64,000 nt of DNA, taken from contig NZ_CP110616.1 of NCBI RefSeq assembly GCF_026153295.1, positions 1 to 64,000 of the forward strand. Direction: 5' to 3'. Made by a program: the position numbers and the translations under genes. The notes under the pieces were generated by a model. It worked only from the letters and a program-made list of their open reading frames with translations. It had not been told where the DNA came from and did no database searches. Source of the DNA: Rhodococcus antarcticus (GTDB taxonomy: Bacteria; Actinomycetota; Actinomycetes; Mycobacteriales; Mycobacteriaceae). Shown piece after piece: positions 1,219 through 20,286 of the stretch. Within the stretch, counting starts at the first letter, position 1, and each line of letters begins with the position of its first letter.

Positions 1219-1683
1219 TTACCCCTCCGCCCAGGTGCCGGCCGGGGCCGGCACCGTCTTCAGGGGCGTCCCGTCGCTGCGGTGTCCGGTGTGGGTGCAC
1301 TGGGCGAACGGGCCGCCGGTGCTGGTCAGGATGGTGAGGTGGTGGTCGAGGACCTGCCACCACCCGAGCATGGCCACCGCGCCCTCGGTGCGGGCGTTCT
1401 CCCACGCTTCCCAGAGGCCGTTGAGCCGGCTGATGGCTTCGGGGTGGGCCCACCAGTGCGGGCACCACCGGAAGGCGTTCTCGTTGTGCTGGCGTCGGAT
1501 GGTGGGGGCCAGCCATTCGACGACCCACACCTCCAGCCCAGGGAAGCACCGCTCCACCTCGCCGCCATCTCCCTCGTCGCGGGTCGGGGTGGTGATGGGG
1601 GCGAGGGTCGGGGCGGTGTAGCCGGTGGCCCAGTCATCCCCTCCCCCTCCCCCACTACCGAGCTGGAGGTCGTCGGTGCTCAC
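1219..1683 (-). CDS. DUF4913 family protein
   Basis: A 154-residue protein with the tryptophan-rich DUF4913 core (VVEWLAPTIRR, then WCPHWWAHPEAISRLNGLWEAWE and a GWWQVLDHHL segment). The family is common in actinobacterial conjugative elements and has no established function. I chose the GTG at 1683 because it makes a GTGA overlap with the stop of the coupling-protein gene; another GTG lies one codon earlier. It is the last gene of the conjugation operon. The first ~45 residues are low-complexity (Gly/Thr/Glu-rich), and the last residues after the conserved block are variable. Confidence 0.75.
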   Translation of the reverse strand: MSTDDLQLGSGGGGGDDWATGYTAPTLAPITTPTRDEGDGGEVERCFPGLEVWVVEWLAPTIRRQHNENAFRWCPHWWAHPEAISRLNGLWEAWENARTEGAVAMLGWWQVLDHHLTILTSTGGPFAQCTHTGHRSDGTPLKTVPAPAGTWAEG

Positions 1684-3458
1684 CACTGCAGCGCCTTCAC
1701 CGGGGCGGGCCTCGCCAGCGGGTCGACCGACGGCGGCTTAGTCGGGCCGACCAGGCGGCCGTTCACGAACGCGGGCAGCCCACCCCCGCCGGCGTAGGTG
1801 GCCGCGGAGGCGGTGATGGCCTCGGCGTGGGGGCCGTCCATCCACGGCACCGCCCGCAGCAGGGTGGGCCGGTTCCCCGCCGACAGCATCAGCGCCCGTC
1901 CTCGCGGGAGGGACTGCAGGTCGGCGACAGTGAAGATCGGCTCCAACGCTGTCGAGTAGCTCGTGGAGGACCCGGTGGCCGAGCTGCTGGTCGAGCGTCG
2001 GCGCACCTCGTGCGGGCCGATGAGGTTGGACAGGAGCTGCAGGAACCGGTCCTCGCTGTTGTTGCCGGCGTAGATCTTGACGTTGGCCGCGGTCCACAGC
2101 GACTGCATCCCCTCATCGCCCCACACGCGGACGCCTTGGGACCAGGACTGCAGCACCGTCTGGACGACGACACCCCTCGAGCCGAGGTGGGAGTACAGGT
2201 CGGGGAGCTCTCGGATGCGGCACACGTTCGCGGCCTCGTCCAGCACCATCACCAGCGGCACGCCCAGCCGGCCACCGTTGCTGACGGCGGCCCGTTCAGC
2301 GGCGGCGAAGACCTGGGCGACCAGAGCCGCCGTCAGCTGGGTCGCGGCCCCACGGCCCTCCTTGGACAGGGCGTAGAGGGTGTCGGTCGAGCGGACGAAC
2401 TCGAGGAGGTCCAGCTGGGGTGGGCTCTTGCGCAGTGCGGTCTGCGGCACCCGTTGGTAGCCGCTCTCGGCGTCGTGGCGGAGCACGAACTCGACCCGGG
2501 TGGTGGGGGTGACCCAGCGGGCGAAGACCGGCTCATCCATCACCGACATGACCAGCCGGGCGGTGGCGTAGGTGCCGGAGCGCTGGTTGCCGGCGGCGGT
2601 GGACTTCTCCCGCAACGACTCCGCCGCATCGTGAAAACCATGCCCCTCCAGGATGGTGGCGGGGGTGTCGTCGGAGGGCCGGCCGAGCCAGTGGGTGACG
2701 TGGATCAGGTCACCACCCCCGAGGGCGGCGGCGAACATGGCCAGCGCGACCAGCTCGACCCCCGTGGGGGTGAAGAACGCATCGGAGGACGCCTTGGGGT
2801 CGACGTAGGCGGCGTGGAACGTCCCCGCCAGCTCCCGGGCCGCCGACAGCGAGACCACCGGGGCAAGGAGGTCGACCCAGAACTCGGGCTCCCGCCCGGT
2901 GAGACGTTGGGGGTCGAACAACCACACCCGGCCCACCAGTTCGCGGACGCCGCGGGTGGTGTCGTGCAGATCCACCTTGTTCGACGTCGCCACCACGGCA
3001 CCGGGGGCGCCGACGATCGCGGGGACGCAGTAGGAGGTCGACTTGCCGATGCGGGGCCCGGCGACAATCAAGCCGACGGACTCCCAGTCCTGGCGCAGCA
3101 CCACCTTCCCCCGCACCGTCCGCCCCAGGGGCAGCCCCAGGTTGTCCGGGTTGCGCAGGTCGCCCCCCGGCAACAGCCGAGCCGCACTCCGCCGGGCGTC
3201 ACTGGGTTTGATGCCGGACAGCTCCCCGGGCGGGGCCAAGTACCGGGCCTTCCCGTCACCCCGGGCCCGGCCCCGCAGCATGCGCACCGCCCCCACGAGG
3301 ACCGCGGCCAGGAGCAGCAGCACGCCGGCGGCGATGAGGACCAGCAGGCCTGTGGTCAGGGTGCCGGCCTGGTGGGCGGCGTAGAGCTTGTAGCCACCGA
3401 GACCGCCACCGAGGACCACCAGGAACGCCGCGGGCACCCACGGGCTGTCGGAGTTCAC
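1680..3458 (-). CDS. VirD4/TraG-like type IV coupling protein
   Basis: A 592-residue inner-membrane ATPase that would dock the relaxase-DNA complex to the secretion channel. Two N-terminal membrane segments lie at about residues 7-26 and 36-58. The Walker A motif AGPRIGKS is at 133-140 and Walker B LVMVLDE at 402-408, followed by the typical SHLGSRGVVVQTVLQSWSQ stretch of VirD4/TraD proteins. Translation starts at a GTG that overlaps the stop of the upstream ATPase gene (GTGA). A longer open frame runs upstream but contains the neighbouring gene in another frame, so it was not used. No relaxase is visible in the window. Confidence 0.88.
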   Translation of the reverse strand: MNSDSPWVPAAFLVVLGGGLGGYKLYAAHQAGTLTTGLLVLIAAGVLLLLAAVLVGAVRMLRGRARGDGKARYLAPPGELSGIKPSDARRSAARLLPGGDLRNPDNLGLPLGRTVRGKVVLRQDWESVGLIVAGPRIGKSTSYCVPAIVGAPGAVVATSNKVDLHDTTRGVRELVGRVWLFDPQRLTGREPEFWVDLLAPVVSLSAARELAGTFHAAYVDPKASSDAFFTPTGVELVALAMFAAALGGGDLIHVTHWLGRPSDDTPATILEGHGFHDAAESLREKSTAAGNQRSGTYATARLVMSVMDEPVFARWVTPTTRVEFVLRHDAESGYQRVPQTALRKSPPQLDLLEFVRSTDTLYALSKEGRGAATQLTAALVAQVFAAAERAAVSNGGRLGVPLVMVLDEAANVCRIRELPDLYSHLGSRGVVVQTVLQSWSQGVRVWGDEGMQSLWTAANVKIYAGNNSEDRFLQLLSNLIGPHEVRRRSTSSSATGSSTSYSTALEPIFTVADLQSLPRGRALMLSAGNRPTLLRAVPWMDGPHAEAITASAATYAGGGGLPAFVNGRLVGPTKPPSVDPLARPAPVKALQW

Positions 3459-5026
3459 GCCACTCCCCCACCGGTGGTGGCCCACGCCCCGTCGGTGTTG
3501 TACAGCTCCCGCTCGGACGGGCTCAGCGACATGGCCACCGGCAGGCCCAGGCGCTCCCCGCTCTTGATGAGGTACTTCCCACGCCCGGGGTGGGCGAGCC
3601 CGCGGTGCCAGGTGGGGGGTGCGGCCCAGGAGGTGACCAGGGCCCGCTCCCCCGACGTCAACGGGGTGATCGCCGACAGGCGGTCGAGCTCGGCAGCATC
3701 CAGGCCCCCGAGGATGACGATGCCGTTGCGGGCCGCCATGCCCCTCGCCTTGGCCCGGTCCTGCTCGGTCGGCAGTGCCTCCAGGTCGGACAGGGAGTGG
3801 GTGATCTGCAGGCTCACCACCCCCCGAGCCCGGTTCAACCTCGTGACCCGGTCTGAGAGCTCCACCAGACCAGGGGCCGCCCGCAGGCGCCGCCACAGCT
3901 CGTCGGAAACCTCGACGACGTTGCGACGCCGCCCGGAGGCCAGCGAGGACTCGACCATGGTCGAGGTCCACGCCGAGGAACACATCATCGCCGCCGCCAC
4001 GACGTCGTCGGCGTCCCCGTCCAGCGCCGAGATGTCCAACGACAGGACCGCGGTGGAGGCGTCGTAGGCGATGGTGGACGGGCCGTCGAACAGCCCCCGG
4101 ATCGCCCCCTCGCAGAGCAGCTCCAGGGTGGCCCGCAGGGCGCGGGTCTCCCGGGCGTACTCGTGGTCGTCGCGGGCGGCCACGATCCGCAGGCACTCGT
4201 CAGTCCCGCGGGCCAGCACCCGGACCACGTCGGGGATGATCGGCTCGCTGCCGGCGGTCTCCGCCGTCGCCGCCGCGGTGTCCACGGCCACGGCGAGCAG
4301 CCGCTTCTCCATCGTGGACACCGGGCCCGCTTGGACGATGACGACCAGGGCTTCCAGCAGCGACAACCGCCGGGCCCGGACGGTCTCGGCCAGCTCTTGG
4401 CGGCGGGACCCGGTGGCGGCGTCGATCGCCGCCCGCAACGGCCCCGCGTCCAGGGGGTTCACGGTGTGCAGGCCCCGCCCGATCCGGTAGGCGACCCCAC
4501 CCAACGCCTCGACGAGGGGCGTGTACTCGCCCTTCACGTCGCCGGGGACGACCATGCCGAACCCGAACCCCACCAACCCGGTGCAGATCCGCTTGGAGAT
4601 GGCACTCTTGCCCACTCCGGGTTGGGCTTGGATCCACACCCCGGTGTTGGTGATGAGCCCGTCCTGCAGCCACTGGCCGGGGTCCAGCCCGATGGGCTCG
4701 GCGGTGTGCATGTCCCGCCCGATGGGCACCCCCCGAACCTGGGCACCACTGGACGCGGCGAAGGGGAACAGCCCACACACCTGGGTGGTGGTGCCCTGGT
4801 AGGAGCGGCCGGTGTCGATGTTCACCGCGGCCCCACCCCCACGCCCGCGCCACCCCCGGGCCGGTGGCCGACCCCGACCCCGGCTCGCGGCGGCGGGGTC
4901 CACCGGGCCGGGCGTTGGGGCTACGGCTGCAGCGGCTTGGGCGATGACCCGGGCGGAGATCCGCCGGGTCACGTCAGCCTCAGTGTCGTGTCCCCCGGGG
5001 GCGTGGTGTCCGTTGGTGGTGGTCAT
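3455..5026 (-). CDS. VirB4-like conjugation ATPase (ATPase half)
   Basis: A 523-residue P-loop ATPase with Walker A AQPGVGKS at 134-141, resembling the C-terminal motor domain of VirB4/TraC proteins of type IV secretion systems. The first ~65 residues are Ala/Pro/Arg-rich linker. It lacks the long N-terminal domain of classical VirB4. The preceding gene ends with a segment that resembles that domain, so VirB4 seems to be split over two genes here (inference). The ATG at 5026 forms an ATGA overlap with the preceding stop, and the next gene begins inside this stop. It should energise substrate transfer at the cytoplasmic membrane. Confidence 0.85.
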   Translation of the reverse strand: MTTTNGHHAPGGHDTEADVTRRISARVIAQAAAAVAPTPGPVDPAAASRGRGRPPARGWRGRGGGAAVNIDTGRSYQGTTTQVCGLFPFAASSGAQVRGVPIGRDMHTAEPIGLDPGQWLQDGLITNTGVWIQAQPGVGKSAISKRICTGLVGFGFGMVVPGDVKGEYTPLVEALGGVAYRIGRGLHTVNPLDAGPLRAAIDAATGSRRQELAETVRARRLSLLEALVVIVQAGPVSTMEKRLLAVAVDTAAATAETAGSEPIIPDVVRVLARGTDECLRIVAARDDHEYARETRALRATLELLCEGAIRGLFDGPSTIAYDASTAVLSLDISALDGDADDVVAAAMMCSSAWTSTMVESSLASGRRRNVVEVSDELWRRLRAAPGLVELSDRVTRLNRARGVVSLQITHSLSDLEALPTEQDRAKARGMAARNGIVILGGLDAAELDRLSAITPLTSGERALVTSWAAPPTWHRGLAHPGRGKYLIKSGERLGLPVAMSLSPSERELYNTDGAWATTGGGVA

Positions 5027-6543
5027 CAGCGGAGCTTCGCGATGACGGAGGGGTCGATGCCGACGCCGAGGGAGGCGGCGAACCCGGCGGCTTGCGCCCC
5101 GCGGCACTGCCGCAGCCGCAGCTTGGACTGCCCCGCCCGCTCCTCCACGTCGGCGATCGCGGCGGGGAGCATGGCCTTGTCGGTGACGGTGGTGGTCACC
5201 CACACCGTGAACAGCCCGAGCCCGGCACCTTGGGCTTCCTCCTGGGCGGCCTGGCGGGCCCGGTGGGCGTCGTCGCGGTCCCGCTGGGTCTCGTCCCGCT
5301 TGGTCTTCTTCGACCACTCCCGGCGTAGGGACTGGCCGCCGATCTCCCGCTCCACGAGCTTCGCGGCGTCGCCGGCGGAGAACGGCCGGTAGAGCAGGGT
5401 GACCCGGCGGGGGAACACCCCCGGGCTCATCAGCGGCACCAGCACCCTCGAGGTGACCTCCTGCCGGGGGGCCTCGTCCAGGGCCCAGGAGACGGAGAAC
5501 CCGGTGTCGTGGCGGTAGTGGTCCCAGTCGTCCTCCGCGGTGACCGGGCCCCCGTCCTCCCAGCGGAGCACGTCGGTGGCGTCCCCGGTGACCGTGGCCC
5601 CGACTGTGGTGGCCATGGTGCGGGCGGCTTCACCGCGGGCCATGGGGTCGAACGCGGTGCGCAGCCGGCGGATCAGCCACGGGGTGCTCGCCCGGCCCAG
5701 CACCGAGGTGCCGCAGGAGCCGAGCTTGCTCTCGATGCCGGGTAGCCACCGGGTGACCTCCGCGGTGGCGGCAAGCAGGTCCGGTGGGGCTGGGGAGGCC
5801 TTCTTGGGGTCGAAGGTCACCGACACCGACGTGGTGACGTCGGAGGCAGTGGTGGGGGTGGCGGCGACGAGCTCACCCAGGATCTGCCGGGCCAGGGGCG
5901 CCGAGGCCGGGTCGATGCGCCCGGCGACGTAGTCGGCGACGGTGGTGCCCCCGGTGGGGGCAGTGTCCACGGTGACCGCGACCGAGGACACCATCGGCTT
6001 GTAGCCGAGGTCAGCGAGCCAGGACCCGTAGGAGGCGACCCACCGGTCGGTGTCGCGGGCGTCGGCCAGGGAGATGCCGATCGGGGAGACCCGCAGGATC
6101 GCGGTGAGGTGGCCGGTGATGCGGTGCCACAGCAGGACCTGCTTGCCGCCGCGGCCGTCGTCGGTGGTCAACGGGACCAAGGGTGCGAGCAGGCCCGGGA
6201 GGTCGTGCTTGCGCTCGTGCCGGGTCAGGGCACCGGAGATGAACGTCGACGCCCCCGAGGAGCGGGCAAAGATTGAGCGGAGACCGCGGGTGATCCGCGC
6301 CGACACGGTCATGTTGTCGAACGGCACGACGGTGGCGGCGATGAGCACCGCTGCTACCACCAGGGCCAGGACCCCGACACCGAGGCCCAGCGGGAACATG
6401 AAGAACGCGACCAGCAGGACCCCACCCACGCGGGCGCTCTGGGCGCCGGTGAGCGTGCCCAGTCCCCACCCGCGGGGCTCGCGCCACCCCCCGTAGGTCC
6501 GAACCCGGCTCGGCACCATCTGGTTCGGCTTGGTCTCGGTCAT
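5026..6543 (-). CDS. SCO6880 family conjugation protein
   Basis: A 505-residue protein of the SCO6880 family, a standard partner in actinobacterial type IV secretion loci. Residues ~35-75 contain two closely spaced hydrophobic segments, like VirB3/PrgI. The remainder is soluble and ends with a charged, coiled-coil-prone stretch (~405-440) and a FTVWVTTTVTDKAML block that resembles the N-terminal region of VirB4. It is translationally coupled at both ends by 4-bp overlaps. I infer that it supplies the VirB3 and VirB4-N functions to the ATPase encoded next. The family name is recognised; the functional split is inferred. Confidence 0.82.
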   Translation of the reverse strand: MTETKPNQMVPSRVRTYGGWREPRGWGLGTLTGAQSARVGGVLLVAFFMFPLGLGVGVLALVVAAVLIAATVVPFDNMTVSARITRGLRSIFARSSGASTFISGALTRHERKHDLPGLLAPLVPLTTDDGRGGKQVLLWHRITGHLTAILRVSPIGISLADARDTDRWVASYGSWLADLGYKPMVSSVAVTVDTAPTGGTTVADYVAGRIDPASAPLARQILGELVAATPTTASDVTTSVSVTFDPKKASPAPPDLLAATAEVTRWLPGIESKLGSCGTSVLGRASTPWLIRRLRTAFDPMARGEAARTMATTVGATVTGDATDVLRWEDGGPVTAEDDWDHYRHDTGFSVSWALDEAPRQEVTSRVLVPLMSPGVFPRRVTLLYRPFSAGDAAKLVEREIGGQSLRREWSKKTKRDETQRDRDDAHRARQAAQEEAQGAGLGLFTVWVTTTVTDKAMLPAAIADVEERAGQSKLRLRQCRGAQAAGFAASLGVGIDPSVIAKLR

Positions 6544-7853
6544 CGCAGCTGCTCCTCGTCACCGGCAACTGCCGGCTCGGCCCCACTGGGCTGGCCGCCC
6601 TGGGGTGTGGTCATGTCGTTGACCTCGTGGGCGACGGCGCCGCCCACGGCGTGGGCGGCGGCCGAGGCCGCCATCCCCCACGGCCCACCCGCAGCACCCG
6701 CACCCGCAGCAGCTGCGCCACCGCCGGCTCCCGCGCCGACCGCGGCCAACCCGCCGCCTGCGGCTGCGCCGCTCATCGCCACGGCACCGACGTCAGCGCG
6801 ACCACCGCCCCCGGCGGGACTGATCCCCGTCGGGCCACCAGTGGGCTGCGGTGCAGCCCCGCTCGGGGCCTGCCCCCCACCCCCACCGGAGCCGGGGCCG
6901 GTGGCGGCCATGTAGTCGGCCTGCTGAACCGCCGGCGAGCCACCGGAGGAGGAACCGCCACCCCCACCGCGGTTGAGGAGCGCGCCGCCGACGCCGGCGG
7001 CCAGGGCCAGACCCGCACCACCACTGCCGGAGCCACCGAGGTCGGCCCAAGAGAAGAACTTCAGCAGCAGCGGCAGGGCGAACACGGCCATGCCCAGGAC
7101 CATGATCCCGGTCAGGGCGGTGGTGAAGTCGGTGCCGGTGCCTACCAGCTCGAACCCGAGCAGGTAGATGAACCCGACGATGGGCTTGTAGACGACCAGC
7201 GCCAGCAGCAGCGTCCCGAGACGGGGCAGCCACGTCCGGGTGGAGCGCCCGACCGACCCTGCTGCCGCGAGGGGCAGCAGCACGATCAGGATGAGGATCC
7301 CGGCTTGGCGGAACAGCCCGATGACCCACTGCACGGCGGCGATGAGCAGCAGCAGCAGGGCCACGACGAGCAGGGTGAACGGGTTGCTGATCACCGCCGC
7401 GGTCATGAGCGCGGACATCTTCGTGCCGAAGTCGGTGGCGGCGGTGTCGGTGAAGTACCCGGCCAGCGCGTCCCCGGCGGAGAGGGCCCCACCGACCAGG
7501 CCCGTGGCCAGGGCCACGGTCACGGTGTAGCGGACGAGCCCGGTCCCGGTCTCCACCAGGGCGCTGCCCGTGCGGGAGAGCACCACCCGCACCGCCTGTG
7601 CCAGCACGGACATGGTCAGGATCGCGACCACGATGGGCAGCAGGTAGCCCTGCAGCTTCTCCACCGTCGGGGTGTTCGGGTCGATCGACGGGGTGGACAC
7701 CCACCAGGTCAGGGCCTTGACCACCATCTCCCCGGCCGACTCCCCTGCCTTCTGCGCGATGGTGTCGAACGTCGACGACGCCACGCTCGACACCGCCCCC
7801 TGCACCAAACACAGGGGGTTGGCTTGGTTGATCAAGCCGCTGCAATCGGGCAT
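6540..7853 (-). CDS. TrbL/VirB6-like polytopic conjugation protein
   Basis: A 437-residue membrane protein. After a short Cys-containing N-terminus (MPDCSGLINQANPLCLVQ) there are about seven hydrophobic segments between residues ~70 and ~290, including LLVVALLLLLIAAVQWVIGLF and ILILIVLLPLAAAG. The last ~150 residues are Gly/Ala/Ser-rich and probably cytoplasmic or disordered. The layout matches TrbL/VirB6 components of the inner-membrane channel. The ATG at 7853 overlaps the upstream stop (ATGA). A longer in-frame ORF extends upstream, but that region is the neighbouring gene in another frame. Confidence 0.8.
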   Translation of the reverse strand: MPDCSGLINQANPLCLVQGAVSSVASSTFDTIAQKAGESAGEMVVKALTWWVSTPSIDPNTPTVEKLQGYLLPIVVAILTMSVLAQAVRVVLSRTGSALVETGTGLVRYTVTVALATGLVGGALSAGDALAGYFTDTAATDFGTKMSALMTAAVISNPFTLLVVALLLLLIAAVQWVIGLFRQAGILILIVLLPLAAAGSVGRSTRTWLPRLGTLLLALVVYKPIVGFIYLLGFELVGTGTDFTTALTGIMVLGMAVFALPLLLKFFSWADLGGSGSGGAGLALAAGVGGALLNRGGGGGSSSGGSPAVQQADYMAATGPGSGGGGGQAPSGAAPQPTGGPTGISPAGGGGRADVGAVAMSGAAAGGGLAAVGAGAGGGAAAAGAGAAGGPWGMAASAAAHAVGGAVAHEVNDMTTPQGGQPSGAEPAVAGDEEQLR

Positions 7854-8587
7854 CAGAGCACCTTCATGCCGGCCGGCTTGCCCGGGTACGGGATCGCCCG
7901 GGCGGCCGACCACACCGCCACCCAGTCGCCGTTGACCCAGCGCATCTCCACCGGGCTGCCCGACCAGCGCTCGGGCTGACCTGCGAGCGCCTGGTTCAGG
8001 AAGACGGTGGTGATGGTGACGCTGTTCCCGGTGCCGTCGCCGGCAACTAAATAACCCTGGAACAGGCCGATCCCGGCGGGGGCGGTGAGGTAGTCCCCGT
8101 AGGTGGCTCCGGTGGTGGCGGCGTAGGAGGCGTAGGACTGCTGGGTGTCGGTGATCGCCGAGGGGGGCACCTGGGTCCAGCGGGTGGCCCAGGCCTTCTC
8201 GTACACCGACGGGGGTGCGGTGCCGGCGACCTCGTAGATGGCGTGCTGGATGGCCATGGCGGCGCCCTGCTCGGTGTGGGCGAAGCCGGTGGCCACCCCG
8301 CCGTCGGTGGAGCGGGGTCCGTAGGTGGCGGAGTAGGGCAGCAGTGGTTGCTGCGAGGGTGACGGCCGGTAGGCCACGTCTGAGCCGGCGGGGGGCGGTG
8401 AGCTCGAGGTGGGTCCGGCCCCGGCCGTGGTCGGGGCAGCGGCACCCATCGTGGCGCCGGCGCCGCCGGTGTTGGGGCGGGTGAGGAGGTAGACCCCCCC
8501 GGCGAGCAGGGCGAGGACCACCACGGCGGCCACCGCGAGGACGGGGCCCCGACGGCGGGGGGTGGGCTCGGGCATCGTCAGGCTCAT
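7853..8587 (-). CDS. membrane-anchored conjugation-operon protein, unknown family
   Basis: A 244-residue protein with one membrane segment (VLAVAAVVVLALLAGGVYLL, residues ~15-34), a Pro/Ser/Thr/Gly-rich stalk to about residue 75, and an extracellular globular domain containing GFAHTEQGAAMAIQHAI and VEMRWVNGDWVAVW. The topology is that of a bitopic VirB8/TrbF-like or surface channel component, but I do not recognise the family. Start ATG 8587 lies 8 bp after the stop of the small membrane protein gene; a second ATG four codons on is possible. Position between the VirB2-sized and VirB6-like genes argues for a structural role. Confidence 0.7.
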   Translation of the reverse strand: MSLTMPEPTPRRRGPVLAVAAVVVLALLAGGVYLLTRPNTGGAGATMGAAAPTTAGAGPTSSSPPPAGSDVAYRPSPSQQPLLPYSATYGPRSTDGGVATGFAHTEQGAAMAIQHAIYEVAGTAPPSVYEKAWATRWTQVPPSAITDTQQSYASYAATTGATYGDYLTAPAGIGLFQGYLVAGDGTGNSVTITTVFLNQALAGQPERWSGSPVEMRWVNGDWVAVWSAARAIPYPGKPAGMKVL

Positions 8588-8896: not shown

Positions 8897-9478
8897 CTAG
8901 TGGTGGAACGTGGTCGGTGCGGTGAACCCGCGGTGCGGGTGTGCGGGCGCAGGTGTGACGGGGTCGGGTCCCCGGGGTACCGGGCGGTGGTTTGGGTCCG
9001 GGGCCCGCAGCAGGGGGACGAGGGTGTCGAGGAGCTCGGCGAACGCCGCCCGCGCGGGCAGCGCCCATTTGGGGGGCTGGGCGGCGCGGACCGCGGCCGC
9101 CAGGTCCTGCGCGGGGGTGTCGGAGTCGCGCAGCTGGGCGACCCAGGGCAGGTAGATGACGGCGGTGGTGTGGGCCTGCACCATTCGCATCCGGGCCGCC
9201 GCGGTCTTGGGTGGCGTGCCCGGTGCGTCGGCGACGACGAGCAGGACGGGGCGGCCGGGGGCGGACTGCACCGCGGTCAGCGATGACGCGAGCGAGGTGG
9301 CGGTGGACCGGCAGACGAGGACGTCCACGCTGAGCCCCGGCCGGTACACGCCGCGGTCGGTGGACCCGAGGACGGTGGCGATGGTGGTGGTGCCGACCCC
9401 GCCGGCGACCCCGGTGAGGATCGGGGCCCGCTGCACCGGGGGCCACACCAGGGCCCCGGTGGTGCTCGTGCGGCTCAT
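8897..9478 (-). CDS. TadZ/CpaE-like degenerate P-loop protein
   Basis: A 193-residue protein with an N-terminal GVAGGVGTTTIA motif (~23-34). This resembles the deviant Walker A of MinD/ParA proteins but lacks both lysines, as in TadZ/CpaE-type localisation proteins. A VLVCRSTATS and a VLLVVADAPG strand follow at the expected places. The C-terminal 40 residues are Pro/His-rich. It overlaps the lipoprotein gene stop by ATGA, so it is co-translated with the secretion genes. By analogy it may position the apparatus at a cell pole (inference). Not a chromosome-partition ParA; that gene lies at 16173-17105. Confidence 0.65.
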   Translation of the reverse strand: MSRTSTTGALVWPPVQRAPILTGVAGGVGTTTIATVLGSTDRGVYRPGLSVDVLVCRSTATSLASSLTAVQSAPGRPVLLVVADAPGTPPKTAAARMRMVQAHTTAVIYLPWVAQLRDSDTPAQDLAAAVRAAQPPKWALPARAAFAELLDTLVPLLRAPDPNHRPVPRGPDPVTPAPAHPHRGFTAPTTFHH

Positions 9479-10098
9479 CGCTGCTCCACCTGGGCCACGG
9501 CCCACCCGCTGGTGTCCCGGCGCAGCCCCATGTAGGCGACGGTGACCACCGGGTCCAGGACCTGCCCGGTGCGGGTCGTGGGGGTTTGGGTGACCAGGTA
9601 GATGCGGGTCGCGGTGCTGGTGGTGTCGGCCGGACGGTCATCGGCCAAGGGCTCCACCGTCGCGGTGAGCCGGACGCCCTGGGCGGACCAGGTGTTCCAC
9701 CGGGCCCCCGGCGACCGCAGCGGTGGGGTGGTGATGATCGCGGCGGCGTAGTCGGCGGTGAGCAGGCTGATGGTGCGGGCCGCGGCATCGTTCGGGCCGG
9801 TGTCCGTGGCGGTGTTCGCGGTGGTGAACGCGGTCACCACCGCGGTGGCCACGGCGTCGATGCTGGACCGGTCGACCCCGGCCAGGGCGGGGTCCACGGC
9901 GGTCGGGACCGGCGGGGCGCTGCGCTCGGGCTGCACCGACCTCGACACCGTCGGCGGTGCCGCCGCCGCCGAGGACCCGGTGGTGGTGGGGGTGGTCTCG
10001 GTGCCGCCGGCGGCGGTGATCTGCGCTGAGCTGCACCCTGAGACCACAAGTACGACCGTGGTCGCAGCCGCGAGCAATGCTGCGCGGTGGATGGTCAT
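9475..10098 (-). CDS. putative conjugation lipoprotein
   Basis: A 207-residue exported lipoprotein with signal peptide and lipobox VVSGCSS (Cys ~22), then a Thr/Ala/Pro-rich linker and a mixed domain with ATAVVTAFTTANT and VVTVAYMGLRRDTSGWAVAQV. A strong AGGAGG site precedes ATG 10098; the longer upstream frame is a shadow of the hydrolase gene. Its location second in the operon suggests a cell-envelope component of the conjugation apparatus (VirB7-like by position only). Family not recognised. Confidence 0.75.
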   Translation of the reverse strand: MTIHRAALLAAATTVVLVVSGCSSAQITAAGGTETTPTTTGSSAAAAPPTVSRSVQPERSAPPVPTAVDPALAGVDRSSIDAVATAVVTAFTTANTATDTGPNDAAARTISLLTADYAAAIITTPPLRSPGARWNTWSAQGVRLTATVEPLADDRPADTTSTATRIYLVTQTPTTRTGQVLDPVVTVAYMGLRRDTSGWAVAQVEQR

Positions 10099-11147
10099 CC
10101 GAACCTCCTGGCGGTCATGTTTTCCCCGGCCCACCCGGTGAGGTTGGAGACCTTCACGACGTCGCCGGACTGGGGGGCGTTGACCATCTGGCCGCCGCCC
10201 ATGTAGATCCCGGTGTGGTGGACCCCGCCGCTGTCGGCGAAGAACAGGACGTCGCCCGCGACGATGGCGTTGGTGGCGACGGGCTGACCCATCTGGGACT
10301 GCGCGGCGGCGGAGTGCGGCAACCGCAGGCTGCCGCCGCTGGCCTGGGCGGCGGCGTAGATGACGAGCCCGGAGCAGTCGAAGCCGACCTTGGTGTAGTC
10401 GCCGAAGCTGTCGGCCACACCCCCGTCGCGGATCCCGCGGGTGGGGCCGGTGGCGTCGCCCCCGCCCCAGGCGTACACCGTCCCGAGCCACTGCATGCCT
10501 GCGGCGACCATGTTCGCGGCGAACGGTCCCCCGGCGACGATCCCCGCCCCTGCCCCGATGCCGGTGCCGACCGCGGTGTACTTCGCCTCCAACGACCGGA
10601 TGCGGGTGACGTAGGCGGGGGTCTCCCCGTTCTGCGGGATGCCCCCGGCCGCCCGGACCGCCCCACTGCCGGCGTTGTAGGAGGCCAGCACCAGGTCGAT
10701 CACGTCACCGGTGACCTGCCCGGCGGCCAGAGCGGTCGTCATCTCCGCGGCCAGGGCGCAGTCGAAGGTGCCCTGGGCGACGATCGCGTCGCCGGGGTCG
10801 AACGGGGACACCTGCCCGTTGCCGTCGGAGTCCCGGCCGTAGGAGGGCCAGGTGCCGGGCATGAACTGCGACAACCCCTGCGCCCCAGCGGGACTGACGG
10901 CCTCCGGGTTCCACCCGGACTCCGCCTCGATCTGCGCCGCCACCAGCGGGGCACTGACCTCCGGGCAGATCGACCCGGCCTGCAGCACCCACGGCTCCCA
11001 CCCGTTGGGTACCTGACCGGCCACCAGCTGGCCGTGGGCCGATGCGGCGGCCGGGGTGTCGGAGCCCGCCAGCACCGACAGGCCCAGCGGCACCGCGACC
11101 ACGACAGCGATTGCGGCCGCTACCGTTGCAAGCGTCCCCGGAGCCAC
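10095..11147 (-). CDS. lytic transglycosylase / NlpC-P60 peptidoglycan hydrolase
   Basis: A 350-residue two-domain cell-wall hydrolase, the VirB1-type enzyme that opens the wall for the channel. An N-terminal membrane/signal segment (residues 6-28) is followed by an SLT domain (~55-195; catalytic Glu76 in AESGWNP, with GLSQFMPGTW). A C40 peptidase domain (~210-350) has Cys258 in GFDCSGLV and His311 in HHTGIY. The start is GTG 11147. It is the first gene of the conjugation operon; its promoter should lie in the 264-bp gap shared with the divergent EspR-like gene. Confidence 0.9.
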   Translation of the reverse strand: MAPGTLATVAAAIAVVVAVPLGLSVLAGSDTPAAASAHGQLVAGQVPNGWEPWVLQAGSICPEVSAPLVAAQIEAESGWNPEAVSPAGAQGLSQFMPGTWPSYGRDSDGNGQVSPFDPGDAIVAQGTFDCALAAEMTTALAAGQVTGDVIDLVLASYNAGSGAVRAAGGIPQNGETPAYVTRIRSLEAKYTAVGTGIGAGAGIVAGGPFAANMVAAGMQWLGTVYAWGGGDATGPTRGIRDGGVADSFGDYTKVGFDCSGLVIYAAAQASGGSLRLPHSAAAQSQMGQPVATNAIVAGDVLFFADSGGVHHTGIYMGGGQMVNAPQSGDVVKVSNLTGWAGENMTARRFG

Positions 11148-11410
11148 TATCTATCGCCCGTCTTTGCGGCGATAGCTGCACCCCATCGATGACAGGTCCA
11201 TGTCATGGATCCCTCACTCATCGCGCTCCCCCTCTCGGAACGTCCACCCGCGAGCGAGTGACACCAGCGAATCAACTGTAGTTTGCTTAACAGTCTTGAC
11301 GCTAAACCACAGTGCTGGGTGGGGCAACCTGTCGTCTGTCTGCACTGCGCTTGGCGGGCCACCCATGTGCGATGCTCGCTGCGACAGAGACAGAGACGGG
11401 AGGCCACCTC
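11148..11410. promoter_or_regulatory. divergent promoter region between conjugation and regulatory operons
   Basis: The only gap separating the minus-strand conjugation genes from the plus-strand regulatory trio. It is AT-richer than its flanks. It holds an inverted pair, ACTGTAGTTT at 11275-11284 and AAACCACAGT at 11304-11313. On the minus strand the left half overlaps a TACAGT hexamer that fits a -10 box; on the plus strand a TTGACG hexamer lies between the halves. A third copy of the half-site lies at 13368-13377, just past the trio. I infer an operator; the binding protein is unproven, with the EspR-like product the obvious candidate. Confidence 0.5.
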
Positions 11411-11854
11411 ATGCCACGGGATGGTGTTCCTGGTCTGGCGCCCAACCTGAACCGGCTGTTCGAAACAATCCCCCGGCCTGATGGTGGCGGCCTCTACACC
11501 AACGAGTTGGCCGCAAAGGCGCTTGGTGAGCTCGGTGTTCAGGTCAGCGCTCAGCACCTCTGGCTGCTCCGCGGTGGGCAGCGTGACAACCCGTCGTTCA
11601 GGCTGCTGGACGGGATAGCAAGGCTGTTCGGGGTGCCCTTGGCGTACTTCTCAGATCCGGAGGTCGAGGCACGGGTCAGCGCGGAGTTGTCTACGCTTGC
11701 AGCGCTGCACGACTCGGGGGTGAAGGCGCTTCTGACGCGTGCGCACGGGGTCAGCCCTCAGAACATGGCGCACCTCGGTGCGATTCTCGACCAGATACGC
11801 CAGATGGAAGGGCTCGATGCTGCGCAGGACCCGGAAGGCCCGACAGGCCAGTAG
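11411..11854 (+). CDS. EspR-like XRE-family regulator
   Basis: A 147-residue DNA-binding protein. LNRLFETIPRP near the N-terminus, the helix-turn-helix with QHLWLLRGGQRDNPSF, then LFGVPLAYFSDPEVE and a C-terminal LTRAHGVSPQNM helix match mycobacterial EspR and its relatives throughout. In Mycobacterium, EspR is a nucleoid-associated regulator of secretion genes. I chose ATG 11411; the upstream in-frame extension is non-coding leader. The gene overlaps the following ImmA-like gene by 38 bp. It is divergent from the conjugation operon, suggesting control of transfer. Confidence 0.85.
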   Translation: MPRDGVPGLAPNLNRLFETIPRPDGGGLYTNELAAKALGELGVQVSAQHLWLLRGGQRDNPSFRLLDGIARLFGVPLAYFSDPEVEARVSAELSTLAALHDSGVKALLTRAHGVSPQNMAHLGAILDQIRQMEGLDAAQDPEGPTGQ

Positions 11855-12305
11855 CTACGCCCACCTCGTTCCGGTCAGCGGTGACCTCGACGAACTCGTC
11901 GACAGGGTCGCGGCCCGCCGGTCTCGGTCGATCACGCTGATGCCGACCCCGCTACCCGAGGACGCGCCCTCAGGGCTGTGGGTTGCCACGACAGCACGGG
12001 ACTACATCGTCTACCCCGATAACGCGGACGCCCAGTGGCGCTCCGGCATCGTCTGCCACGAGCTCGCCCACATGCTGCTGGAGCACGACCCGCAGCCCGG
12101 CACAGCTGACCTGGGAGCCATGGTGTCCCGTGCCGCACCGAGCATCGACCCCCAGGTAGCCGCCCGGTTCCTGCACCGCCACGGGTATGACGACGCGGCC
12201 GAGGCTGACGCCGAGTATCTCGGAACCCGTCTGGCAGCCCGGCTCGGGGCCGCGCACACAACCGGCAAACGTCACCGCGATCGGGTGTTCGACAGGATGC
12301 GATGA
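11817..12305 (+). CDS. ImmA/IrrE-like metallopeptidase-domain protein
   Basis: A 162-residue protein with a zinc-binding HELAH at 81-85 in IVCHELAHMLLEH and a later acidic helix (DDAAEADAEYLG) that could supply the third ligand. ImmA-type peptidases cleave or inactivate a partner XRE repressor, which switches on horizontal transfer in ICEBs1. Here the EspR-like protein encoded just upstream is the likely target (inference). The ATG at 11817 is chosen because it gives a compact protein and overlaps the upstream gene, implying coupling. The next gene starts in an ATGA overlap at 12302. Confidence 0.8.
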   Translation: MLRRTRKARQASSYAHLVPVSGDLDELVDRVAARRSRSITLMPTPLPEDAPSGLWVATTARDYIVYPDNADAQWRSGIVCHELAHMLLEHDPQPGTADLGAMVSRAAPSIDPQVAARFLHRHGYDDAAEADAEYLGTRLAARLGAAHTTGKRHRDRVFDRMR

Positions 12306-13357
12306 TCGTCCAGGCCGCGGCGGTGCTGCTCTGGGTCGCCGCTTCCTACCGCATGTGGGTGACTGTGCGGTCACCACACGCCCTGTGGCGCATCAGTTTT
12401 ACTGTCTCCACGGTGTCGGTGGCCGTCGCCATGACCCTGCAGCTCTCCCGGGCCCAACTCGATGCCACCATGCACATCCCGAATATTGCCGGTCTCCTGG
12501 TCCACCTCGTGTTCGCCGTGGGCCTGGCCTGGGTCCACGTCTACCTGGAGACGTTGCGCCACGAGCACCCCGACCCCGGTCGAGTCCGCCGCTATCTCGT
12601 CGTCGGGGCTGCTGTCGCAGCGATGATGATGGCGACCTGGGTGCTCAGCCCCATCCACGCCGGGGAATACGCGAGCTTGGCGGAGGCGCCGGGGCATCCC
12701 GCTCTCGTCGTCTATCACCTCGCCTTCTACGGATACATGATCATCTCCCTGGGCGACATCGCCCGGTTCTGCGCCCGCGAGGCACGACCCCACCGGCCGG
12801 CCGCGCTGACCCGCCGCCTCAGCCTCGCTCTCATCGGCGTGGCCTGCGCCGCGGCGATGCCGGTGATGGTGCTCTACGCGCTTAGCGCCGTCCTCCCGGC
12901 AGCCACGGGGCACTCCGGACAGGTGTACGGGCGTCTGGGTGACGCCTTGGTGCCATGGCCGCTTATGGTCCTGTCGCTGGGAATCCTCGCCTTGTGGACA
13001 ATGCCTTGGTTCGTCGATGTCGCTTCAGCCGAGCGCCGATGGCGCACTCTGCGGCCCTTGTGGGCACACTTGGTCGCCCGCCACCCCGAGGTACATCTGT
13101 CACTACCGTCACCGGCACGTCCCCTAGGGCGGCAGCAGCTGCGGGAGAGGCGGGTCATCATCGAGATCAACGACGCCCTGCGCCACGAGACCGTCCAAGC
13201 CCGGCCCGGATCCGGCCCGAACGCGCTAGGCGCAGCCCTCGCACGTCAAACTCCGGGTTCGACCCAAGCCCGCGATGTTCTCGACTCCACCGTCGATGAG
13301 ACCGGGGCACTCGAGCAGCTGCTTCGGCTCGCCCAGGCCTACAGTGCAGCGCGTTGA
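12302..13357 (+). CDS. MAB_1171c-like multipass membrane protein
   Basis: A 351-residue protein with about seven membrane segments between residues 1 and ~250 and a cytoplasmic tail rich in charged residues (RRWRTLRPLWAHLVARHPEVHL, then RRVIIEINDAL). This is the arrangement of the MAB_1171c family of putative transporters (DUF6545-type). In actinobacteria they often follow an XRE regulator and an ImmA-like gene, as here. It starts in a 4-bp overlap with the ImmA-like gene. A sensor or membrane-signal role is possible but unproven. Confidence 0.75.
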   Translation: MIVQAAAVLLWVAASYRMWVTVRSPHALWRISFTVSTVSVAVAMTLQLSRAQLDATMHIPNIAGLLVHLVFAVGLAWVHVYLETLRHEHPDPGRVRRYLVVGAAVAAMMMATWVLSPIHAGEYASLAEAPGHPALVVYHLAFYGYMIISLGDIARFCAREARPHRPAALTRRLSLALIGVACAAAMPVMVLYALSAVLPAATGHSGQVYGRLGDALVPWPLMVLSLGILALWTMPWFVDVASAERRWRTLRPLWAHLVARHPEVHLSLPSPARPLGRQQLRERRVIIEINDALRHETVQARPGSGPNALGAALARQTPGSTQARDVLDSTVDETGALEQLLRLAQAYSAAR

Positions 13358-13367
13358 CTCCAACTGG

Positions 13368-13377
13368 ACTGTAGTTT
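13368..13377 (+). promoter_or_regulatory. third copy of the ACTGTAGTTT half-site
   Basis: Identical over 10 bp to the left half-site at 11275-11284 in the divergent promoter region. It lies 11 bp past the stop of the membrane protein gene, so the regulatory trio is bracketed by the motif. Confidence 0.35.
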
Positions 13378-13429
13378 ATCTTCGACTACTGTGCCGTCAT
13401 CCACCGTTGAGTTGGTTTGTAAGCGGGCG

Positions 13430-14056
13430 TTAGGCCAGCGCGGGGTAGACGATGGCTGCGGCGGCAGCGCCGACGACAAGACCGACGAGGACCTGGCCCC
13501 GGGAGTGTCGGCCCGCGCGGAGGCGAGCCCACGCGATAGCCGCCAGCAACGCCGCCAGAGGGACCGCGGCCGACCAGCCGAGGACGAGCCCGATGATGAC
13601 CGTGACTCCTCCAGCGACCGCCAGGTGGAACGACGCCTTGTACCAGTGCGACACCACTGTCATGGCACCCAGCCCCGCCAGCATCGCCACCACCAGAGCG
13701 AGAACAGGTCGTGGCGCCTCAAGGCCGGCCAGTACGAGCAGTCCCACGATCACGGAGGCCAGGGCCGCGAGCAGCGGGGCGCGGCGCTGCTCTCGGACAA
13801 CCAGATGCTGGTCCAGGACTCGGCCTTGGGTGGCCATGCCGAGCAGCACTGCGTAGGGAATCACCACGCAGAACAGCACGGCAAGGCCCGTCCAGAGTGC
13901 TGCCGACCACAGTCGATCCGTCGAGTGGGCCGCAACCACCGCCAGCACAGCCACCACCATGACCGCTGGGTGCGTCACGAGGGCAACAAGATCAGCAAGT
14001 CGCGAGGGGCGCGCCGCCGTGAGTCGCACGACGTCGGGGTGCGCATCGAAGCTCAT
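13430..14056 (-). CDS. PAP2-superfamily-like membrane protein
   Basis: A 208-residue protein with about six membrane helices. The C-terminal half has the spacing of type 2 phosphatidic acid phosphatases: SHWYKASFH (Ser/His) followed by RLRAGRHSRGQVLVGLVVG, where His in RHS aligns with the catalytic His of motif 3. The usual partner Asp is replaced by Gln (HSRGQ), and motif 1 (KxxxxxxRP) is not evident, so activity is doubtful. Start ATG 14056 is chosen, with an earlier in-frame ATG possible. The gene is transcribed towards the regulatory trio and stands alone. Confidence 0.6.
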   Translation of the reverse strand: MSFDAHPDVVRLTAARPSRLADLVALVTHPAVMVVAVLAVVAAHSTDRLWSAALWTGLAVLFCVVIPYAVLLGMATQGRVLDQHLVVREQRRAPLLAALASVIVGLLVLAGLEAPRPVLALVVAMLAGLGAMTVVSHWYKASFHLAVAGGVTVIIGLVLGWSAAVPLAALLAAIAWARLRAGRHSRGQVLVGLVVGAAAAAIVYPALA

Positions 14057-14197
14057 GTCGTCGAGGGTAGGACCCGCGCCATGGCGAGCCGCGACCGTCA
14101 TGGAGGTGCCAACAGCCTGCTTGCGGCCGAGGCGGCCAGAGTCGGTTGTTTCTCGCGGTTTGGGCGTGTCTGCGGCCCTAACAGTTACGCACCCACC

Positions 14198-14407
14198 ATG
14201 GTGTGTTCCATGGCCCAGCCACATAAGGGAGACCGCGACCAGGTCGCGGCTCGACTCGCGCACCCCGTCTACGTCGCCGTGAAGTCAGCGGCCGCCCAGC
14301 GTGGCATGCCCATGAGCCAGTACGTCGCCGACGTACTGGCTACTCACGTGGGCAGGCCCGACCTCGTGCTGCAACTCGACCAGGAGGTGCTTCCTCAGAG
14401 CGCCTGA
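14198..14407 (+). CDS. small ribbon-helix-helix-like protein
   Basis: A 69-residue protein. The segment VAARLAHPVYVAVKSAAAQRGMPMSQYVADVLATHVG has the strand-helix-helix pattern of Arc/CopG-type DNA-binding proteins, common as copy-number regulators or antitoxins. A second ATG at 14210 is equally likely as the start; neither has a clear ribosome site. It sits 66 bp upstream of the candidate antisense RNA and the rep-like gene, so copy control is a reasonable guess. Confidence 0.6.
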   Translation: MVCSMAQPHKGDRDQVAARLAHPVYVAVKSAAAQRGMPMSQYVADVLATHVGRPDLVLQLDQEVLPQSA

Positions 14408-18559: not shown

Positions 18560-18750
18560 TGACAGCGGCCACGGGAAACTGCCCGGAGACGGTCAATTAG
18601 CTGCCCGGTGGCGGACATGGGAGTTGCCCGCTGGCGGTCATGAGATCTGCCCGACACGACGTCGTTCGCCTCGCCGCTTCTCGCGGTGGAGGCCCCTCCT
18701 GGGGTGCGGTTGGCGGTGCTGATGCGCCGTTCGCCCCCAGGAGGGACACC

Positions 18751-20286
18751 GTGAAGTCTGCCGAGGAGATCATGAACATGTTGGAAGCTTTCGACTTGAC
18801 CGGGTCGTTGCGTGATGCCGGGGAGCTGTCCGGGGTTTCTCACCACACCGTCGCCCGGTATGTCGCGGCTCGCGACGCAGGCGGGATCTCTGATCGCGGC
18901 GCGCCGCGCCCGCAGCTGATCGACGCTTACGTGGCCAAGGTCGAGGAGTGGGTCGAGTGGTCGGCGGGCAAGGTCCGCGCCGACGTCGCCCACGACAAGC
19001 TCGTCGCGTTGGGCTTCACCGGTTCGGAGCGCACCACCCGCCGGGCGGTCGCGGTCGTGAAGGCGAACTTCCGGGTCGGGCGGGTCCGGGTGCACCGCCC
19101 GTGGGTCACCGAGCCGGGGATGTGGATCCAGTACGACTTCGGCGACGGGCCGATGATCGACGGGGTCCGCACCACGTTGTTCGTGGCGTGGTTGGCGTGG
19201 TCGAGGTTCCGGGTGGTGCTCGCGATCAGGGACAAGACCTCACCGTCGGTGATGGCCGCCCTGGACGTGACGATGCGCCGCATCGGTGGTGCGCCGACGT
19301 ATCTGCTGACCGACAACGAGAAGACCGTGACCGTCGAGCACGTCGCCGGCATCGCGGTCCGCAACCCCGCGATGGTCGCCTTCGCCCGCCACTACGGCGT
19401 CACGTTGCACACCTGTGTCCCGGTGGACCCGGCGTCCAAGGGCGGTAGCGAGTCCTCGGTGAAGGTCGCCAAGGCGGACCTGGTCCCCACCGACACCAAC
19501 CTCCTCGGGGCCTACGAGTCGTTCGCGGACCTGGAGGACGCGTGTGAGGTGTTCTGCGCGCAGGTCAACGCCCGGGTCCACCGGGTCACGCGCCGGGCCC
19601 CGGAGGCGATGCTCGCCGAGGAACGCCTGCGTCTGCACCCGGTCCCGGCCGACCCGCACACGGTCGCGTTCGGCCTGACACGGGTCGTGCCACCCAAGAC
19701 GCCGATGGTCACCTTCGAGGCCGGGCAGTACTCCGTGCCGCACGAGTTGCTCGGGGCGACGGTCTGGGTGCGGGTGCACGGGCGCGGCGCCGACGAGCAG
19801 GTTGTCATCGTCCACGTCGGGGCCACCGGCCCGCTCGAGGTCGCCCGCCACGCCCGCGCGAGGCCGGGCAGCCCGCAGATCACCGACGCCCACTTCCCGC
19901 CCGCGCCGCCCGGCGCGCTCGGGCGGGTCCCGTTGGCCCGGACCGTGTCCGAGGCCGCGTTCTTGTCCCTCGGTGACGGCGCGAGGGTCTGGTTGGCCGA
20001 GGCCGCCGCAGCCGGCACCACGAAGATGCGCGTGAAGATGGCCCAAGCCGTTCAGCTCGCGAAGCTGTTCACCCGCGCCGACGTCGACTGGGCCCTGGGT
20101 CACGCGGCGGTCCATGCCCGCTTCGCGGAGGCCGACCTCGCCTCGATCCTGGACCACCACGCAACGATCACCGCGGCAGCCGGGCCCGTCAGCCAGGCCA
20201 GCGAGGACCGGTCCCTGACCCAGGGCACCGCGGGCTGGGCCACACTCGGCGCATCCACACCCGACGCGACGCAGGTGACCGCGTGA
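18751..20286 (+). CDS. istA: IS21-family transposase IstA
   Basis: A 511-residue DDE transposase. An N-terminal HTH (LRDAGELSGVSHHTVARYV, ~15-35) is followed by the rve-type core with the first Asp in IQYDFGDGP, the second in LLTDNEKTV and Glu in KGGSESSVK, then a beta-rich C-terminal domain. The GTG start at 18751 has a strong AGGAGGG 5 bp upstream. The stop overlaps the istB start by 4 bp, the coupling normal for the family. Confidence 0.92.
   Translation: MKSAEEIMNMLEAFDLTGSLRDAGELSGVSHHTVARYVAARDAGGISDRGAPRPQLIDAYVAKVEEWVEWSAGKVRADVAHDKLVALGFTGSERTTRRAVAVVKANFRVGRVRVHRPWVTEPGMWIQYDFGDGPMIDGVRTTLFVAWLAWSRFRVVLAIRDKTSPSVMAALDVTMRRIGGAPTYLLTDNEKTVTVEHVAGIAVRNPAMVAFARHYGVTLHTCVPVDPASKGGSESSVKVAKADLVPTDTNLLGAYESFADLEDACEVFCAQVNARVHRVTRRAPEAMLAEERLRLHPVPADPHTVAFGLTRVVPPKTPMVTFEAGQYSVPHELLGATVWVRVHGRGADEQVVIVHVGATGPLEVARHARARPGSPQITDAHFPPAPPGALGRVPLARTVSEAAFLSLGDGARVWLAEAAAAGTTKMRVKMAQAVQLAKLFTRADVDWALGHAAVHARFAEADLASILDHHATITAAAGPVSQASEDRSLTQGTAGWATLGASTPDATQVTA

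What the first reader, a model, noticed from the sequence alone, without database searches (positions are those of the whole stretch)
11148..13377. EspR-like / ImmA-like / MAB_1171c-like trio as a possible switch for conjugation
The trio is divergent from the transfer operon, its genes overlap, and matching 10-bp motifs lie in inverted orientation in the shared promoter region and once more just past the trio. ICEBs1 uses a repressor-antirepressor-peptidase switch. Here a membrane protein could add a surface signal, which would be a new version of the switch.
Basis: inference. Interest (0 to 1): 0.6.

Follow-up and report, generated by a model that had tools for sequence, protein, structure and literature searches.

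The report
Membrane-sensor switch beside conjugation genes
Beside a plasmid's DNA-transfer genes sits a three-gene unit (a DNA-binding repressor of the EspR family, an ImmA-type protease and a seven-helix membrane protein) that recurs across Actinobacteria, has become linked to transfer genes several separate times, and probably lets a signal at the membrane switch neighbouring genes on.

Summary
HTH (11411-11854), protease (11817-12305) and membrane protein (12302-13357) overlap and diverge from a type IV secretion (T4SS) operon. ACTGTRGTTT occurs exactly three times in 64 kb (0.04 expected): inverted pair 11275/11304 in the shared intergenic region, one at 13368 past the trio. The HTH is EspR family over its full length; the protease keeps HExxH...E and a PprI/IrrE-like fold; the membrane protein (MAB_1171c family) models as a 7-helix bundle resembling GPCRs. 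The trio is Actinobacteria-wide (78 of 81 MAB_1171c loci carry the protease, 72 the HTH) and usually lies away from transfer genes, often before a P450, amidohydrolase or PAP2 gene, so it is not a conjugation gene by nature. But T4SS linkage is scattered over the protease tree (at least 5 changes forced), and the HTH normally faces the transfer operon. The operator recurs in near relatives, including two held-out ones; downstream copies sit before xis-int, a second wall-hydrolase operon, or (window) inside a predicted promoter. Best reading: EspR-like repressor, ImmA-type protease, membrane sensor; cleavage and signal are inferred. In many mycobacteria espR itself neighbours the same protease-membrane pair. 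New variant of the ImmR-ImmA kind.

The parts
11411..11854 (+). EspR-family HTH DNA-binding protein (probable repressor), 147 aa
   Evidence: PDB 3qf3/3r1f/4ndw EspR E about 1e-19 over residues 9-137; alignment with 19 relatives
11817..12305 (+). ImmA/IrrE-type (M78) metalloprotease, 162 aa; H81, E82, H85 and E129/E133 invariant
   Evidence: AF2 model pLDDT 87, Foldseek top hits PprI/IrrE 8slm, 8sln, 3dte, prob 0.99-1.0
12302..13357 (+). MAB_1171c-family membrane protein, about 7 transmembrane helices plus C-terminal DUF6545 region
   Evidence: NCBIfam NF042915 above cut-off, Pfam PF20182, hydropathy, AF2 model pLDDT 92, GPCR-like 7TM matches
11275..11284 (+). operator site 1, ACTGTAGTTT (dyad AACTGTAGTT at 11274-11283)
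11304..11313 (-). operator site 2, ACTGTGGTTT, inverted relative to site 1
13368..13377 (+). operator site 3, ACTGTAGTTT, 11 bp past the trio, inside the spacer of a predicted promoter
13354..13382 (+). predicted sigma-70-like promoter TTGACT-17-TATCTT overlapping site 3 (9 of 12 consensus; 0.0 expected in shuffles of this region)
   Evidence: consensus match only
11148..11410 (.). shared divergent intergenic region between trio and transfer operon
10095..11147 (-). first gene of the divergent transfer operon: SLT transglycosylase + NlpC/P60 wall hydrolase
6540..7913 (-). SCO6881-family T4SS membrane protein
   Evidence: 4e-11, below the family cut-off
5026..6543 (-). SCO6880-family T4SS protein
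   Evidence: 1.8e-141
1680..4196 (-). VirD4/TraG-like coupling protein (true start probably well inside this ORF)
   Evidence: TraG-D_C 2.4e-30
13430..14263 (-). PAP2-like membrane protein, convergent with the trio; in relatives it is the fourth gene of the trio operon
   Evidence: 40% identity to L007 3396-4013 and 41% to L071 5792-6400; the orthologous gene in L094 scores PAP2 3.5e-5

Best explanation
The trio is a repressor-protease-membrane sensor switch. The EspR-like protein binds AAC-N4-GTT dyads (consensus RCTRTRGTTW) in the shared promoter region, holding down both its own operon and the divergent T4SS operon, and binds a further copy that controls the next operon downstream. On a signal received by the 7-helix MAB_1171c-family protein, the ImmA/IrrE-type protease inactivates the EspR-like protein, probably by cutting it, and the flanking mobile-element operons are expressed. 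Shown: gene identity and order, protease motif and fold class, 7-helix model, operator conservation, repeated T4SS linkage. Inferred: that the HTH binds these sites, that it represses, that the protease cuts it, that the membrane protein senses and controls the protease.
For: Three exact motif copies at the trio's borders, 0.04 expected. The degenerate form RCTRTRGTYW matches only at trio borders in the window (3 of 3), L090 (1 of 1), L091 (2 of 2, an inverted pair), L094 (2 of 2) and L014 (1 of 1). Two loci not used to build it, L068 and L071, each have one match in 10 kb, both in the HTH-facing intergenic region; only 5 of 4000 permuted patterns do that. Background is 0.012 matches per kb. 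The downstream copy lies about 50 bp before a HTH_17 excisionase-like gene plus tyrosine integrase in L014, and before an operon with an M23 wall hydrolase in L090; in the window it lies inside a predicted promoter. The trio is a stable unit: M78 in 78 of 81 and HTH in 72 of 81 MAB_1171c loci. Catalytic residues invariant, fold like PprI/IrrE. Thirteen other T4SS loci in a 249-genome sample have the MAB_1171c gene within 20 kb, 12 of them on the strand opposite to the SCO6880 gene. Linkage is scattered over the tree: parsimony 12 changes, at least 5 forced by well-supported branches; in L071 the T4SS is another kind (TcpF-type ATPase).
Against: Most copies of the trio lie away from transfer genes. 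The exact window core ACTGTAGT is only modestly enriched at trio borders family-wide (rank 17 of 1161 same-composition 8-mers), and a motif learned from 71 other trio promoters does not single out the window sites, so the operator is shared only by near relatives. EspR itself is an activator and nucleoid protein, not a simple repressor (PMC3315491). No sigma-70-like promoter was found in the shared intergenic region. The GPCR resemblance is near the range seen by chance for helical bundles. No binding, expression or cleavage data.
Confidence: 0.45

Rival explanations
1. Autonomous sensory module riding on mobile elements: the trio regulates itself and its own fourth gene (PAP2, P450, amidohydrolase, oxygenase), which makes or modifies a small molecule or lipid; its place beside T4SS operons reflects only shared life on plasmids and ICEs.
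For: Most trio loci lack T4SS; of 50 scanned downstream genes 10 are P450, 5 amidohydrolase, 5 PAP2, 3 FAD monooxygenase-like, 2 MpaB/Lcp oxygenase; M. avium, M. intracellulare and M. riyadhense plasmids carry trio-P450 units without annotated T4SS genes within 12 kb; L059 has the operator before its HTH without any T4SS seen.
Against: Linkage arose several times, with the HTH usually directly facing the transfer operon; the operators lie in the shared intergenic region, and downstream copies sit before xis-int or a second wall-hydrolase operon rather than before the fourth gene.
Confidence: 0.25
2. EspR-like architectural activator: the HTH bridges promoter and downstream sites into a loop, as EspR does, and activates or insulates the transfer operon; the protease sets its level.
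For: Full-length EspR homology including the dimerisation region; EspR forms dimers of dimers and loops between distant sites (PMC3315491); sites lie at both ends of the trio.
Against: The downstream copy usually has its own downstream operon, so looping is not needed to explain it; no activator-type promoter layout is recognisable.
Confidence: 0.15
3. Regulated exporter: MAB_1171c is a transporter, as its database name says, and HTH plus protease control its expression in response to the substrate.
For: NCBI calls the family a putative transporter; an M. abscessus MAB_1171c mutant was listed among those with altered drug susceptibility and made about 50% less biofilm (PMC8707978).
Against: The model is a single 7-helix bundle whose best matches are all 7TM receptors, not transporters; it would not explain the sites facing T4SS operons.
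Confidence: 0.1
4. Defence or addiction module (CapH-CapP-like or toxin-antitoxin): the membrane protein is a toxic effector held back by HTH and protease.
For: HTH-protease pairs regulate CBASS operons (own knowledge); weak capH match of the HTH (E 0.0025).
Against: No PADLOC hit for protease or membrane protein, no viral relatives, confidently folded 7-helix architecture.
Confidence: 0.05

Closest known systems
ICEBs1 ImmR-ImmA (RapI/PhrI) and the TnSmu1 ImmR-like/ImmA pair
   Same: HTH regulator with an adjacent ImmA-type HExxH protease, at the transfer or xis operon; in L014 an operator copy even lies before xis-int
   Different: HTH belongs to the EspR family; a 7-helix membrane protein is translationally coupled to the protease where ICEBs1 uses RapI/PhrI; the window is on a 111-kb contig, probably a plasmid; cleavage not shown
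Mycobacterial EspR (Rv3849)
   Same: full-length homology; site 1 contains TTTGCTT, 6 of 7 letters of the EspR consensus TTTGC[TC][GA]; in several mycobacteria espR lies next to a protease-MAB pair
   Different: EspR is a chromosomal nucleoid-associated regulator of ESX-1; in the mycobacteria seen the pair is convergent with espR
IrrE/PprI-DdrO of Deinococcus
   Same: metalloprotease plus HTH repressor logic; best structural match of the protease
   Different: DNA-damage response, no membrane component (own knowledge)
CapH-CapP regulators of CBASS
   Same: HTH repressor with ImmA-like peptidase at the promoter of a neighbouring operon (own knowledge)
   Different: only a weak capH match (E 0.0025); no protease hit in PADLOC; membrane protein instead of an ssDNA trigger
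BlaR1-BlaI
   Same: membrane sensor, HExxH protease and repressor relieved by proteolysis (own knowledge)
   Different: in BlaR1 sensor and protease are one protein; here they are separate genes of other families

Membership tests
MAB_1171c family (NF042915) | score above the curated cut-off | tested here: met
   104.8 bits against 100
MAB_1171c family (NF042915) | transport activity implied by the name | not testable with these tools
   no assay; the model resembles 7TM receptors
ImmA/IrrE (M78) metalloproteases | HExxH plus downstream Glu ligand | tested here: met
   H81 E82 H85 and E129/E133 invariant in 28 and 46 sequences
ImmA/IrrE (M78) metalloproteases | IrrE-like fold | tested here: met
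   top Foldseek hits 8slm, 8sln, 3dte, prob 0.99-1.0, TM 0.40-0.45, E 0.005-0.04
ImmA/IrrE (M78) metalloproteases | Pfam PF06114 gathering score | tested here: not met
   14.1 bits against 22; a divergent member at best
EspR family | homology over HTH and dimerisation region | tested here: met
   residues 9-137, E 1e-19
EspR family | binds TTTGC[TC][GA] and bridges distant sites | tested here: inconclusive
   TTTGCTT within site 1 (consensus from PMC3315491); binding not assayed
ImmR-ImmA conjugation switches | HTH and ImmA-type protease adjacent, facing the transfer operon, with operator-like sites between | tested here: met
ImmR-ImmA conjugation switches | ImmR-type HTH family | tested here: inconclusive
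   the HTH's only PDB sequence matches are EspR; no direct comparison with ImmR was made
ImmR-ImmA conjugation switches | protease inactivates the repressor | not testable with these tools
   needs in vitro cleavage
ImmR-ImmA conjugation switches | RapI/PhrI or RecA input | not tested
   no search for RRNPP proteins was made
CapH-CapP (CBASS) | CapH and CapP profiles | tested here: not met
   capH E 0.0025 for the HTH; no hit for the protease
GPCR-like 7TM receptors | 7TM receptor fold | tested here: inconclusive
   VIA-align Z 14.7 over 216 residues at 4.0 A; Foldseek E 0.17 or worse; helical bundles reach about 13-14 by chance

The most novel reading that the evidence does not exclude
A receptor-like 7-helix membrane protein controls a separate cytosolic ImmA-type protease that destroys an EspR-family repressor: an Actinobacteria-wide, previously undescribed route of transmembrane signalling to transcription by proteolysis, repeatedly co-opted to switch conjugation, of which the tuberculosis virulence regulator EspR is a descendant that lost its partners.
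Probability: 0.3. Interest if true: 0.85.

Novelty: new variant of a known kind. Interest (0 to 1): 0.62.

Why it matters
How actinobacterial conjugative T4SS operons are switched is largely unknown. If right, this names the switch, its operator and a candidate membrane receptor, all testable. It also places EspR, a much-studied regulator of ESX-1 in Mycobacterium tuberculosis, in a family whose usual partners are an ImmA-type protease and a membrane protein, and suggests asking whether EspR levels in other mycobacteria are set by proteolysis. The variable fourth gene (P450, PAP2, amidohydrolase, oxygenase) hints that the membrane protein reads a small lipophilic molecule.

Tried and rejected
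Apparent HTH-protease-membrane triple fusion in L049: rejected, the HTH part looks frameshifted. A single family-wide operator: EM on 71 trio promoters found tgTCaACtGa.GTg.A (log-likelihood 140 against 55-75 for shuffles) but it does not rank the window sites, so no claim of one universal operator. Exact core family-wide: only top 1.5% of same-composition 8-mers. DNA-level and protein-level search of plasmids with the trio region and the membrane protein: no trio relatives. Viral contigs: none; PHROGs none. Literature on MAB_1171c, DUF6545, EspR neighbours and ImmA/EspR: one M. abscessus mutant paper, nothing on the trio. A first related-loci query with 28 proteases was too divergent. Foldseek and VIA lists for the membrane protein show only GPCRs; absence of other families there is not evidence.

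Full report
WHAT IS THERE. On the + strand at 11411-13357 three genes overlap: an HTH protein (11411-11854), a small metalloprotease (ATG 11817, to 12305) and a membrane protein (12302-13357); the transfer operon starts at 11147 on the other strand. The membrane protein is above the cut-off of NCBI's MAB_1171c family. The HTH matches crystal structures of EspR at E 1e-19 over residues 9-137, so both DNA-binding and dimerisation regions are shared. The protease is a divergent M78 member, below Pfam's cut-off, but HExxH and EAE are invariant among relatives, and its AlphaFold2 model (pLDDT 87) matches PprI/IrrE best. The divergent operon holds an SLT+NlpC/P60 hydrolase, SCO6881- and SCO6880-family proteins and a VirD4-like coupling protein, that is, a T4SS. 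The window is part of a 111-kb contig, probably a plasmid; the same genome has a second SCO6880-type T4SS on a 99.6-kb contig without a trio in the 20 kb read there.

THE MOTIF. ACTGTRGTTT occurs exactly three times in 64 kb, all at the trio's borders (0.04 expected). Because the motif was chosen after looking, I repeated the test with that freedom: three such 10-mers in the non-coding parts alone arise in 5.7% of shuffles, and one as extended as this in 0.3%. Conservation is the stronger test. RCTRTRGTYW matches only at trio borders in these 20-kb loci. Two further near relatives, L068 and L071, were not used to make the pattern: each has one match in 10 kb, in the intergenic region the HTH shares with the divergent operon; 5 of 4000 permuted patterns do the same. 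With the window's own pattern at up to 2 mismatches, 5 of 400 permuted patterns do as well. The site is a dyad, AAC-N4-GTT.

THE COPY PAST THE TRIO. It recurs in L090 (17 bp after the fourth gene) and L014 (18 bp after the fourth gene). In L014 it lies about 50 bp before a HTH_17 excisionase-like gene and a tyrosine integrase; in L090 about 48 bp before a further operon with a secreted protein and an M23 wall hydrolase. In the window it lies in the spacer of a predicted promoter, TTGACT-17-TATCTT. I read it as the operator of the next operon. In the window the PAP2-like gene 13430-14263 is inverted compared with L094, L091 and L071, where it is the fourth gene of the trio operon; a single inversion of a PAP2-plus-site block would explain why site 3 now follows the trio directly (inference).

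HOW GENERAL IS THE TRIO. Of 81 MAB_1171c-family genes examined, 78 have the protease on the same strand and 72 an EspR-like HTH within 3.5 kb. Most have no T4SS. Of 50 scanned downstream genes, 10 are P450, 5 amidohydrolase, 5 PAP2, 3 FAD monooxygenase-like and 2 MpaB/Lcp oxygenase. So the trio is a general sensory-regulatory cassette. Yet in 249 genomes of the order, 13 other T4SS loci have it within 20 kb, 12 with the membrane gene on the strand opposite to SCO6880; my rough expectation from gene density is about half a case, though both kinds of gene live on mobile elements, and three of the 13 (L003-L005) are near-copies. The tree of the proteases scatters the linked ones: parsimony 12 changes, at least 5 forced by well-supported branches, 52 of 500 shuffles as low. 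In L071 the divergent operon is another kind of T4SS, with a TcpF-type ATPase, VirD4-like and CD3337/EF1877-family proteins. Repeated arrival at the same position is best explained by regulation of the transfer operon.

MEMBRANE PROTEIN. Hydropathy gives about seven transmembrane segments; the AlphaFold2 model (pLDDT 92, pTM 0.85) is a 7-helix bundle with a C-terminal helical region. The top structural matches are 7TM GPCRs (VIA-align Z 14.7 over 216 residues at 4.0 A; Foldseek E no better than 0.17). Helical bundles can reach such Z without kinship, so I take it only as receptor-like topology. It argues mildly for a sensor rather than a transporter.

ESPR. In mycobacteria L081-L084 the HTH beside the protease-membrane pair is EspR itself or nearly so: for L082 the PDB match to M. 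tuberculosis EspR is E 1.5e-67 with an almost unbroken alignment, flanked by genes that look like the Rv3848 and Rv3850 neighbours (gene naming from own knowledge). The same adjacency follows from coordinates in eight sampled genomes. In M. tuberculosis, by my knowledge of the map, espR and Rv3850 are adjacent, so the pair would be missing there. Papers found on EspR mention no such partners in the passages read.

MECHANISM. Shown: gene order, families, catalytic motif, fold class, operator conservation, repeated linkage. Inferred: the HTH binds the sites and represses both divergent promoters and the next operon; the protease inactivates it; the membrane protein gates the protease. ICEBs1 gives the precedent for HTH plus ImmA at a transfer operon (PMC6540685), TnSmu1 a second one (PMC10233336, abstract). 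The main rival is that the trio serves its own fourth gene and merely travels with T4SS.

LIMITS. Gene calls in relatives come from a simple caller of mine; HTH starts are approximate. L007 and L094 are the same locus. The operator is shared by near relatives only; a family-wide motif search gave a different, weaker consensus. No binding, cleavage, expression or transfer data exist here.

Noticed in passing
L081-L084 (for example L082 3795-5916): espR lies tail-to-tail beside an ImmA-type protease and a MAB_1171c-family membrane gene in several mycobacteria; other sampled mycobacteria have an EspR match but no MAB_1171c match.
   Followed up: partly
window 13430-14263: PAP2-like gene is inverted relative to the trio compared with Klenkia, Modestobacter and L071, where it is the fourth gene of the operon.
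   Followed up: partly
L024 7067-15540 (M. intracellulare plasmid): Two complete trio-P450 units lie in tandem.
   Followed up: no
window 29712-30878: A second, larger protein with a Peptidase_M78 domain (PF06114, 1.8e-13) on the same contig.
   Followed up: no
window 9401-9483, - strand: ARAGORN predicts a tRNA-Thr (GGT) inside the transfer operon; possibly spurious.
   Followed up: no
window 18640-21089 and 25071-27139: Two IS21-like transposase/IstB-type regions (18640-21089 with IstB; 25829-27139 a related transposase).
   Followed up: no
L003-L005: These T4SS-linked trios carry an alpha/beta hydrolase between HTH and protease, a WhiB-like gene at the start of the divergent operon (L003, L005), and (L004, L005) a perfect 10-bp inverted repeat CTTGACAGCG/CGCTGTCAAG before the HTH.
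   Followed up: partly
L050 6326-6937, L058 3472-4101: Two tandem protease-like genes per trio; the upstream copy lacks HExxH and may be a pseudo-protease.
   Followed up: no
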